DNA of 64,000 nt from Nonomuraea sp. NBC_00507. Lineage in GTDB: Bacteria > Actinomycetota > Actinomycetes > Streptosporangiales > Streptosporangiaceae. A program made the translations under genes and the position numbers. The stretch lies in contig NZ_CP107853.1 of the NCBI RefSeq assembly GCF_036013525.1, forward strand, positions 2,852,001 to 2,916,000, given 5' to 3'. Shown here in pieces: positions 25,163-28,618 of this stretch. The notes under the pieces are model-generated. The model was not told where the DNA came from. It was given only the letters and a program-made list of their open reading frames with translations, and made no database searches. Position 1 is the stretch's first letter, and each line of letters opens with the position of its first letter.

Positions 25163-28100
25163 TCAGACTTCTTCCACGCTGCTCGGCTCGCGCCGGGACA
25201 GATCGATGCCGAGCTCCTCCGCGGCGCGGAAGACGTCCTCGTCGGTGTCGCGCATCTCGATGGACATGCCGTCGCTGGAGAGCACCTCGACGTTCAGGCA
25301 CAGCGACTGCATTTCCTTGATGAGCACCTTGAAGGACTCCGGAATACCGGGCTCCGGGATGTTCTCGCCCTTGACGATGGCCTCGTAGACCTTCACGCGG
25401 CCATGGACGTCGTCGGACTTGATGGTCAGCTGCTCCTGCAGGGCGTAGGCGGCGCCGTACGCCTCCAGCGCCCACACCTCCATCTCACCGAAGCGCTGGC
25501 CACCGAACTGGGCCTTACCGCCGAGCGGCTGCTGGGTGATCATGGAGTAGGGGCCGGTCGACCGAGCGTGAATCTTGTCGTCGACCAGGTGCAGCAGCTT
25601 GAGGATGTAGATGTAGCCGACCGCGATGGGATAGGGGAACGGCTCGCCGGAGCGGCCGTCGAACAGTTGGGCCTTGCCACTGCGCTGCACCAGCCGATCC
25701 CCGTCACGGTTGGGGACAGTGCTGTCGAGCAGCCCGATGATCTCTTCTTCATTGGCGCCGTCGAAGACCGGGGTGGCGACGTTGGTGCGCGGGGCGACCT
25801 TCTCGAAGCCCTTGTCACGCAGCCGCTCGGCCCAGGCCTCCTGGATGCCCGAGATGTCCCAGCCGCGGGCGGCGATCCACCCCAGATGGGTCTCCAGCAC
25901 CTGACCGACGTTCATCCGGCCGGGCACGCCCAGCGGGTTGAGGATGATGTCGACCGGGGTGCCGTCCTCCAGGAATGGCATGTCCTCGACCGGCAGGATC
26001 TTGGAGATGACGCCCTTGTTGCCGTGCCGGCCGGCCAGCTTGTCACCGTCGGTGATCTTACGCTTCTGCGCCACATACACGCGCACCAGCTCGTTCACAC
26101 CCGGAGGCAGCTCGTCGCCCTCCTCACGGGAGAACACCCGCACCCCGATGACCTTGCCCTGCTCGCCGTGCGGCACCTTCAGCGAGGTGTCGCGCACCTC
26201 ACGCGCCTTCTCACCGAAGATCGCACGCAGCAGCCGCTCCTCCGGCGTCAGCTCGGTCTCACCCTTCGGGGTGACCTTGCCGACCAGGATGTCACCCGGC
26301 ACGACCTCGGCGCCGATCCGGATGATGCCGCGCTCGTCGAGGTCGGCCAGGACCTCCTCCGACACGTTCGGGATGTCCCGGGTGATCTCTTCGGGGCCGA
26401 GCTTGGTGTCCCGGGCGTCGACCTCGTGCTCCTCGATGTGGATCGAGGACAGCACGTCGTCCTGGACCAGCCGCTGAGACAAGATGATGGCGTCTTCGTA
26501 GTTGTGGCCCTCCCACGGCATGAACGCCACCAGCAGGTTCTTACCCAGCGCCATCTCGCCCTTGTCGGTGCACGGGCCGTCGGCGATGACCTGGTTGACC
26601 TCCACCCGGTCACCCTCGGCGACGATGGGCTTCTGGTTGAAGCTCGTGCCCTGGTTGGAGCGCTTGAACTTGGCCACCCGGTAGGTGGTGCGGGTGCCAT
26701 CGTCGTTCATCACGGTGATGTAGTCGGCCGAGACCTCCTCCACCACGCCCGCCTTCTCGGCGCTGATGACGTCACCGGCGTCGGTCGCGGCACGGTATTC
26801 CATGCCGGTGCCGACCAGCGGCGCCTCGCTCTTGAGCAGCGGCACCGACTGCCGCTGCATGTTCGCGCCCATCAACGCCCGGTTGGCGTCGTCATGCTCG
26901 AGGAACGGGATCATCGCCGTGGCCACCGACACCATCTGGCGCGGCGACACGTCCATGTAGTGCACGTCGCCCGAGCGGATGTGCTCGAACTCGCCACCCT
27001 TGCGCCGTACGAGCACCCGGTTTTCAGCGAAGCTGCCGTCCTCCGTCAGCGCGGAGTTCGCCTGGGCGATGATATAGCGGTCCTCCTCATCAGCGGTGAG
27101 GTAGTCGACCTGGGAGGTCACCTTGCCGTCGACGACCTTGCGGTAAGGCGTCTCGACGAAGCCGAAGGGGTTGAGGCGCCCGAAGCACGCGAGGTAGCCG
27201 ATGAGGCCGATGTTCGGGCCTTCGGGGGTCTCGATCGGGCACATCCGGCCGTAGTGGGACGGGTGCACGTCACGGACCTCCATGCCCGCCCGCTCACGGG
27301 ACAGACCACCGGGGCCGAGCGCGTTCAGACGCCTCTTGTGGGTCAGGCCGGCCAGCGGGTTGGTCTGGTCCATGAACTGCGACAGCTGCGAGGTGCCGAA
27401 GAACTCCTTCATTGACGCCACGACCGGGCGAATGTTGATCAGGGTCTGCGGCGTGATCGCCTCGACGTCCTGCGTGGTCATGCGCTCACGCACGACGCGC
27501 TCCATGCGGGCCAGGCCCAGGCGGACCTGGTTCTGGATCAGCTCGCCGACACTGCGGATGCGGCGGTTGCCGAAGTGGTCGATGTCGTCGATCTCCACGA
27601 CGACCTCACCCATCGAAGCCTCGCCGGCGTGCAGCCGGACGATGTATTCGATCATCGAGACGATGTCGTCTTCGGTCAGCGTGCCGTGCGTGATCTCCGA
27701 GTCGACACCGAGCTTCTTGTTGATCTTGTAGCGGCCCACCTTGGCCAGGTCGTACCGCTTGGGGTTGAAGTAGAGATTCTCCAGCAGAGTCTGCGCCGAC
27801 TCCTTGGTCGGCGGCTCACCCGGCCGCAGCTTGCGGTAGATGTCCAGCAGCGCGTCATCCTGGCCGGCCGTGTGGTCCTTCTCCAGGGTGGCCCGCATCG
27901 ACTCGTACTGGCCGAACCGCTCGAGGATCTTGTCGCTGGTCCATCCCAGTGCCTTGAGAAGCACGGTGACGGCCTGCTTGCGCTTACGGTCGATGCGCAC
28001 ACCGACACTGTCACGCTTGTCGATCTCGAACTCGAGCCAGGCACCACGCGACGGGATGACCTTGCAGCCGTACAGATCCTTGTCCGACGTCTTGTCGACA

Positions 28101-28618
28101 TTACGTTCGAAGTAGACGCCGGGCGAACGGACCAGCTGCGAGACCACGACACGCTCGGTGCCGTTGATGATGAACGTGCCCTTCGGCGTCATGAGCGGGA
28201 AATCACCCATGAACACCGTCTGGCTCTTGATCTCACCAGTGGTGTTATTGATGAACTCCGCCGTCACGAACATCGGGGCGGAGAAGGTCATGTCCTTGTC
28301 TTTGCACTCATCGACTGAGTACTTCGGCGGCTCGAACCGGTGGTCGCGGAACGACAAGGACATGGTCCCCGAGAAGTCCTCGATGGGACTGATCTCTTCG
28401 AAGATCTCTTCGAGGCCCGACTGGGTCGGGACGTCCTTGCGCCCGGCCTGACGAGCCGCCTCTACCCGGGCCTTCCACTTCTCGTTTCCGAGCAGCCAAT
28501 CAAACGACTCGGTCTGCAGAGCGAGAAGGTCAGGAACTTCGAGAGGCTCCTGGATGCGCGCGAAAGAGACGAGACGGGGACCAGCGGGTACGGCGGAGGC
28601 GTTGCGCGAGGCTGCCAA
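25163..28618 (-). CDS. rpoB: RNA polymerase beta subunit, stand-alone second copy with rifampicin-pocket substitutions
   Basis: A full-length, 1151-residue beta subunit with all conserved blocks, including [14 protein letters not shown] and the C-terminal [18 protein letters not shown]. It would assemble with alpha, beta' and omega made elsewhere. The rifampicin region (residues 406-434) is unusual: [12 protein letters not shown] and [13 protein letters not shown]. By alignment from memory it has Asn432 where E. coli has Ser531, Thr419 for Asn518 and Ala423 for Ser522, while His427 (E. coli His526) is kept. Just after cluster [15 protein letters not shown] replaces the usual GLIGSLSVYARVN, with Tyr475 at the Ser574 position. 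The TTG start follows GGAAGGA. rpoC is not adjacent; the gene is monocistronic. Paralogous rpoB genes are known in Nonomuraea and Nocardia. Confidence 0.95.

What the first reader, a model, noticed from the sequence alone, without database searches (positions are those of the whole stretch)
25163..28618. Stand-alone second rpoB with substitutions in the rifampicin pocket
The beta subunit is complete but unlinked to rpoC and closed by its own terminator. Against the usual actinobacterial sequence it carries Asn432 (E. coli Ser531), Thr419 (Asn518), Ala423 (Ser522) and, just after cluster II, Tyr475 (Ser574) in a run of six changes. Ser531 and Ser574 changes give rifampicin resistance in E. coli. 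Paralogous rpoB genes that alter secondary metabolism or give resistance are known in Nonomuraea and Nocardia. His427 is unchanged here, unlike the H426N described for Nonomuraea rpoB(R), so this is a different combination. It may act as an alternative polymerase subunit.
Basis: partly seen in the sequence, partly recalled or inferred. Interest (0 to 1): 0.85.

Follow-up and report, generated by a model that had tools for sequence, protein, structure and literature searches.

The report
Second rpoB with protected drug pocket
This soil bacterium carries a spare copy of the gene for a main part of its RNA-making enzyme; most of the spare seems to be overwritten again and again to match the normal copy, but the stretch that forms the rifampicin pocket stays different, which suggests that the cell keeps two enzymes that differ chiefly there.

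Summary
The gene is real: a complete rpoB (minus strand, 25163-28618, 1151 aa) without rpoC; a housekeeping rpoB-rpoC lies elsewhere in the same Nonomuraea genome. Thr419 and Ala423 are normal for the family; Asn432 (E. coli 531), Met446 (545) and Tyr475 (574) are not. N. gerenzanensis RpoB(R) has the same three plus H426N, absent here. So it is a variant of the known duplicated-rpoB class. The new part is a mosaic: most of the gene is almost identical to the housekeeping copy, silent sites included, but codons 311-585 and 931-999 differ. In a family sample of 30 genome pairs, the body of the lone copy is mostly closest to its own genome's housekeeping copy, while the pocket-bearing island mostly groups with lone copies of other species. 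All 30 lone copies change residue 526, 531 or 574; 1 of 34 linked copies does. This fits recurrent gene conversion that spares the island. Resistance, expression and assembly into polymerase are untested; whether selection or failed recombination spares the island is open.

The parts
25163..28618 (-). Lone rpoB (rpoB2/rpoB(R) type), 1151 aa, TTG start
   Evidence: Open frame, Pfam beta-subunit domains, 95% identical to the rpoC-linked rpoB
26864..27688 (-). Island 1, codons 311-585: end of lobe (4-aa deletion), rifampicin domain, external-1 domain; 41 of the 56 aligned amino-acid differences from the housekeeping copy
27182..27379 (-). Pfam Rpb2 domain 3, codons 414-479, with Asn432, Met446, Tyr475 (E. 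coli 531, 545, 574); His427 (526) unchanged
26945..27145 (-). External-1 domain, codons 492-558; the most divergent part of island 1
25622..25828 (-). Island 2, codons 931-999; 11 of the 56 differences
27764..28561 (-). Tract identical to the housekeeping copy, codons 20-285 (796 nt exact run)
25976..26851 (-). Tract almost identical to the housekeeping copy, codons 590-881 (exact runs of 554 and 320 nt)
28619..28705 (-). Leader, 87 nt identical to that of the housekeeping rpoB
28726..28754 (-). Predicted promoter TGGACA-N17-TACGCT; the housekeeping copy has TGGACA-N17-TACACT at the matching place
   Evidence: Pattern match only
28790..28818 (-). Possible upstream promoter TTGACA-N17-CATTAT
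   Evidence: Read by eye, located; weak
25111..25145 (-). GC-rich hairpin between convergent genes, possible terminator

Best explanation
The gene encodes an alternative RNA polymerase beta subunit of the rpoB(R)/rpoB2 class. It would assemble with the cell's single beta' and the other subunits into a second RNA polymerase (inferred). S531N, F545M and S574Y should make that enzyme less sensitive to rifamycin-type inhibitors (inferred from published E. coli mutants and from N. gerenzanensis) and may shift which genes it transcribes (inferred). Recombination with the housekeeping rpoB repeatedly overwrites the leader and the body of the gene (strongly supported), which keeps the subunit compatible with the rest of the enzyme (inferred). 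The island with the rifampicin and external-1 domains, and a second island at 931-999, are rarely overwritten (shown); that selection for a different pocket is the reason is inferred.
For: Two rpoB genes and one detected rpoC. All 30 lone copies change 526, 531 or 574, against 1 of 34 linked. Median 4-fold-site difference within genome pairs is 0-7% in 10 of 23 bins, against 17-44% between linked copies of different genomes. In the tree of all body codons the lone/linked label needs 26 changes (shuffles about 21.5), in the island tree 4. Nearest linked copy is the own one in 27 of 29 genomes for the body, 6 of 29 for the island; body distance is below island distance in 29 of 29. Exact runs of 120 nt touch codons 427-490 in 2 of 29 genomes, shift null mean 16.4, 0 of 10,000 as low. 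At codons 426-450, 75-nt runs are rarer within genomes (2.0 of 29) than between linked copies of different genomes (18.8%). Within the genus, own-pair body distance (3.8%) is below that between species for linked body (5.1%), while own-pair island distance (12.2%) is above that between species for linked island (5.7%). N. farcinica has a similar mosaic. S531N gave resistance to higher rifampicin levels in E. coli (PMC7073797, passages). The lone gene is constrained: dN/dS about 0.2 in codons 401-590.
Against: No expression, assembly or resistance data. H426N, the residue tied to the known effects of RpoB(R), is absent here. One clade of all lone islands is rejected, and so is one clade of the genus's lone islands, so the island history is not one clean old split. 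At bin 501 a linked copy of another genome is the best match in 13 of 30. Island 2 is a weaker case: 9 of 29 touched, 174 of 10,000 shifts as low. Other bins (151, 301) also have medians over 20%. In G330 both copies carry N531 and differ by 2 residues, so the pocket can be homogenised too. The body of lone copies is about twice as relaxed as that of linked copies (dN/dS 0.11 against 0.05).
Confidence: 0.7

Rival explanations
1. The islands are spared for a mechanical reason: once they had diverged, unlike sequence no longer recombines, so no present selection is needed.
For: Runs rarely cross the most divergent part: 0.0-0.7 of 29 genomes at codons 501-525. External-1 and island 2 vary freely in linked copies too: dN/dS 0.38 and 0.31.
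Against: The rifampicin region is highly conserved between linked copies of different genomes, yet lone copies differ there from their own partner. All 30 lone copies carry pocket changes.
Confidence: 0.3
2. The main role is not drug tolerance but reprogramming of transcription (stress, secondary metabolism), with resistance a side effect. This can be true together with the best explanation.
For: RpoB(R) of N. gerenzanensis alters antibiotic production and metabolism in alkaline medium (PMC5431353, sections read; section 7 in part). Lone copies have promoter types unlike the linked one.
Against: That effect was tied to H426N, absent here and present in 6 of 30 lone copies. Conserved pocket changes fit drug pressure at least as well.
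Confidence: 0.35
3. Each species duplicated its housekeeping rpoB recently and the pocket then changed fast by itself.
For: Bodies of the two copies pair within genomes; lone copies lie at several different sites.
Against: Islands differ at silent sites as much as between genomes, and 20 lone islands from several genera form one group, 98/89. G010, G018, G037 and G049 share the same site, yet bodies pair within each genome in the post-hoc bins.
Confidence: 0.07
4. The mosaic is an assembly artefact: near-identical genes mixed by the assembler.
For: Long identical tracts are hard for short reads; a draft of the same species (G046) breaks at codon 253 in both copies.
Against: Seen in genomes of 1-5 contigs, with different tract limits per genome. 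A break in both copies is what a true repeat gives. N. gerenzanensis G018 and NZ_LT559118.1 agree at 99.97-100%, though they may be the same assembly. [quoted passage not shown]
Confidence: 0.04

Closest known systems
Nonomuraea gerenzanensis ATCC 39727 rpoB(R) (NZ_LT559118.1; PMC5431353, PMC3536979)
   Same: Second rpoB without rpoC; S431N, F445M, S474Y; lobe deletion; mosaic with the housekeeping copy
   Different: Window keeps His427 (no H426N), has a 4-aa instead of a 6-aa lobe deletion, another neighbourhood and promoter type; 87 aligned differences between the two proteins
Nocardia farcinica rpoB2 (NZ_LN868939.1)
   Same: Second rpoB without rpoC, S574Y, stretch of 100% identity per bin (rounded) at codons 601-900 with the housekeeping copy
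   Different: Other family; has H526N, keeps Ser531; 77% identical to the window protein
Long-lasting concerted evolution of duplicated genes such as tuf (PMC6053082, passages)
   Same: Paralogs of one genome more alike than orthologs, explained by gene conversion
   Different: There homogenisation of the paralogs is the theme; here islands stay distinct. The word rpoB does not occur in that paper (count)

Membership tests
Duplicated rpoB class of actinomycetes (rpoB(R)/rpoB2) | Coexists with a housekeeping rpoB in the same genome | tested here: met
Duplicated rpoB class of actinomycetes (rpoB(R)/rpoB2) | Not linked to rpoC | tested here: met
Duplicated rpoB class of actinomycetes (rpoB(R)/rpoB2) | Substitutions in or near the rifampicin clusters | tested here: met
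   Asn432, Met446, Tyr475; 30 of 30 lone copies changed at 526, 531 or 574
Duplicated rpoB class of actinomycetes (rpoB(R)/rpoB2) | Rifamycin resistance conferred by the product | not testable with these tools
   Inferred from S531N in E. coli (PMC7073797, passages)
N. gerenzanensis type rpoB(R) as characterised | H426N, reported as essential for activating secondary metabolism | tested here: not met
   His427 in the window; Asn in 6 of 30 lone copies. So it is filed in the wider class, not as this type
N. gerenzanensis type rpoB(R) as characterised | Deletion in the hypervariable beta lobe | tested here: met
   4 aa here, 6 in N. gerenzanensis
Concerted evolution by gene conversion | Paralogs of one genome closer, silent sites included, than orthologs of other species | tested here: met
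   Met for much of the body, not for the islands
Concerted evolution by gene conversion | Gene present before the species split (same site in related species) | tested here: inconclusive
   Same site in G010/G018/G037/G049, in part in window/G031, G002/G023 and G012/G026; other sites differ

The most novel reading that the evidence does not exclude
The lone rpoB is a unit of promoter plus gene that has moved between genera of the family. On arrival its body is rewritten by conversion from the resident rpoB, while an island (rifampicin/fork region, external-1 domain and a second patch at 931-999) is kept as a polymorphism shared across genera. Many actinomycetes would thus maintain two RNA polymerases that differ by a discrete functional module.
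Probability: 0.4. Interest if true: 0.75.

Novelty: new variant of a known kind. Interest (0 to 1): 0.6.

Why it matters
The main genome paper on duplicated rpoB calls its biological significance obscure (PMC5431353, abstract). The mosaic shows which parts of the second subunit evolution keeps different and which it keeps the same, and so gives a short list of residues and domains to test. It also shows that H526N, the residue studied so far, is in 6 of 30 lone copies, while S531N (22), S574Y (19), and changes at 585 (23) and 976 (22) are commoner. Long identical tracts also explain why short-read assemblies may break or mix the two genes.

Tried and rejected
Rifamycin-associated element: in the 600 bases upstream of lone and linked genes the best match had 5 of 19 mismatches (motif recalled, not from a call). 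Rfam: nothing at 24900-29000 up to E 1. Arr (PF12120): no match in the own genome. UvrD_C, as a look for HelD-like genes: 8 matches, not told apart, not used. Operon partner of the lone rpoB: none found; flanks within 5 kb are shared only in small groups. M581D of RpoB(R) (PMC3536979) was not seen in NZ_LT559118.1, where the position I align to it is Leu in both copies; 'S531Y' in PMC5431353 looks like a slip for S574Y (my reading). Rejected: the only rpoB of the genome; Thr419 and Ala423 as resistance residues.

Limits of the sample: the 30 pairs have both copies full-length in the listings, which were cut short, so more divergent pairs are missing. Drafts with broken copies were not used; G221 was dropped because one copy is cut by a contig end. 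Four more linked copies (G001, G019, G035, G041) give 34. G330 is in counts of 30, left out of counts of 29. The bins of the tree (own pairs sister in 26 of 30, counted by eye) were chosen; (body tree) and 45 do not rest on that choice, though island limits were drawn. The AU tests were named after the quick tree had been seen, so their p values are too sharp. Two lone copies (L052, L072) failed the first script and were added.

Full report
WHAT IS THERE. The window gene is on the minus strand, 25163-28618, 1151 aa, TTG start, open throughout, with six Pfam domains of the bacterial beta subunit. The genome (12.9 Mb, 2 contigs) holds a second rpoB, 95% identical, at C1:201911-205375, followed at once by rpoC. 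PF00623 finds rpoC in a single open frame. The genus is Nonomuraea: a G020 match has the same limits as the N. guangzhouensis record, and G018 matches N. gerenzanensis NZ_LT559118.1 at 99.97% and 100% in its two rpoB genes.

RESIDUES. Against its own housekeeping copy the window protein has 56 aligned differences, including a 4-aa lobe deletion; 52 lie at codons 311-585 (41) and 931-999 (11), 4 elsewhere. Thr419 and Ala423 are not among them. Among 30 lone and 34 rpoC-linked copies: 531 is N in 22 and T in 1 of 30, against N in 1 of 34; 574 is Y in 19 of 30 against 0 of 34; 526 is N in 6 and Q in 2 of 30 against 0 of 34; 545 is M or V in 17 of 30 against M in 3 of 34. At least one of 526, 531, 574 is changed in 30 of 30 lone and 1 of 34 linked copies; the exception is G330. 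A review lists H426N, S431N, F445M, S474Y and M581D for N. gerenzanensis RpoB(R) (PMC3536979, passages). In the deposited sequence I see 426N, 431N, 445M and 474Y, not M581D. The window shares three of these and keeps His427. In E. coli, S531N gave resistance to higher rifampicin concentrations and S574Y contributed in combinations (PMC7073797, passages). The serine at 531 hydrogen-bonds rifampicin in mycobacterial RNA polymerase (PMC6175910, passages).

MOSAIC. Between the two copies of this genome, codons 21-310 and 586-930 have no amino-acid difference and very few silent ones; 87 nt of leader are identical. Exact runs of 120 nt or more span codons 20-285, 590-774, 775-881, 999-1063 and 1089-1137. 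Island 1 covers the end of the lobe, the rifampicin domain (414-479) and the external-1 domain (492-558).

FAMILY PATTERN. I took 30 genomes with both copies full-length. The median 4-fold-site difference between the two copies of one genome is 0-7% in ten of 23 bins (51, 201, 251, 351, 651, 701, 751, 851, 1001, 1051), 9-15% in five (1, 101, 801, 901, 1101) and 20-34% in eight (151, 301, 401, 451, 501, 551, 601, 951). Between linked copies of different genomes it is 17-44% in all bins. The label lone/linked needs 4 changes on the island tree and 26 on the tree of all body codons, with shuffles near 21.5. Twenty lone islands from several genera form one group (98/89) that holds the window. One clade of all lone islands is rejected, and one clade of the genus's lone islands too, so the history is not a single clean split. 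Per 50-codon bin, the own linked copy is the best match of the lone copy in 5, 4, 5 and 6 of 30 genomes at 401, 451, 501 and 551 and in 3 at 951, against 9-22 in the other bins. A lone copy of another genome is best in 18, 20, 11, 18 and 22 of those bins; at 501 a linked copy of another genome is best in 13, which fits less well. Runs of 120 nt or more cover 38% of codons within genomes and 1.8% between linked copies of different genomes. They touch codons 427-490 in 2 of 29 genomes (shift null mean 16.4; 0 of 10,000 as low) and codons 951-990 in 9 of 29 (null mean 14.7; 174 of 10,000 as low). Body distance is below island distance in 29 of 29 pairs; the nearest linked copy is the own one in 27 of 29 for the body and 6 of 29 for the island.

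DIRECTION. Linked copies tell a similar history in body and island (distance correlation 0.83). The lone body follows the linked body (0.77); the lone island does so less (0.44 with linked body, 0.31 with linked island). This suggests conversion mainly from the housekeeping copy into the lone one. G330, with N531 in both copies and only 2 residues of difference, shows that the pocket can be homogenised as well.

LOCATION AND PROMOTER. Within 5 kb, G010, G018, G037 and G049 share both flanks; G002 and G023 the downstream, G012 and G026 the upstream flank; the window shares upstream LtrA and sigma-factor genes with G031; most other lone copies share little. By pattern, 6 of 30 lone copies have TGGACA-N17-TACGCT (window, four others of the genus, and G219 of another genus), 8 have TGGACA-N18-TATGCT, 6 have other variants and 10 no match; 32 of 34 linked copies have TGGACA-N17-TACACT (counted by eye; alignment). 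These promoters are predicted only.

DISTRIBUTION. Of 12 genomes of the genus with at most 5 contigs, 10 have two rpoB matches and 2 have one (counted). In the family, 320 of 341 genomes had a match; draft breaks make copy counts uncertain there.

OUTSIDE THE FAMILY. In N. farcinica, rpoB and rpoB2 are 100% identical (rounded) in each bin from 601 to 900 and 72-86% identical in bins 401, 451, 501, 901 and 951, but also 64-89% in bins 1 to 351 and 75% at 1101; rpoB2 has H526N and S574Y. This is one genome. A Microbispora note reports an identical 1,774-nt middle part of two rpoB alleles (PMC3900900, passage). A survey of concerted evolution lists 26 genes and does not hold the word rpoB (PMC6053082; count, passages).

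IN PRINT? Searches of the held library (listings, with passages of some papers) showed me no paper that describes conversion between two rpoB genes. The primary papers of 2005, 2006 and 2009 were not seen (two were tried), so they may say more.

FUNCTION. Shown: an intact gene under constraint (dN/dS about 0.2 at codons 401-590, 0.11 in the body against 0.05 for linked copies) with pocket changes. Inferred: entry into RNA polymerase, lower rifamycin sensitivity, altered transcription. In N. gerenzanensis RpoB(R) changes antibiotic production and metabolism in alkaline medium, and this was tied to H426N (PMC5431353: introduction, genome and discussion sections and part of the transcriptome section read). 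The window copy lacks it, so that role cannot simply be carried over.

VERDICT.

Noticed in passing
L085/L086 (G330): Both rpoB copies of this genome carry N531 and differ by only 2 residues: the one linked copy of 34 with a changed pocket.
   Followed up: partly
L074 (G292), positions matching window codons 417-419: The rpoC-linked copy reads A and E at the positions matching window 417 and 419 where the other linked copies read D and T.
   Followed up: no
plasmids collection, hits H4-H14: Clostridioides difficile records of about 97-150 kb filed as plasmids hold an rpoB; they may be misfiled chromosome pieces.
   Followed up: no
NZ_LT559118.1: The 11.85-Mb N. gerenzanensis chromosome is filed as a plasmid in the collection.
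   Followed up: no
window 21998-22918 +: Nucleotidyltransferase with an AadA-type C-terminal domain by Pfam.
   Followed up: no
window 31520-33925: LtrA-like gene and sigma-70-type factor gene side by side; the same pair lies upstream of the lone rpoB in G031.
   Followed up: partly
window 23665-24078 +: Glyoxalase-family gene 88% identical to one upstream of the lone rpoB in G134, on the other side of the gene.
   Followed up: no
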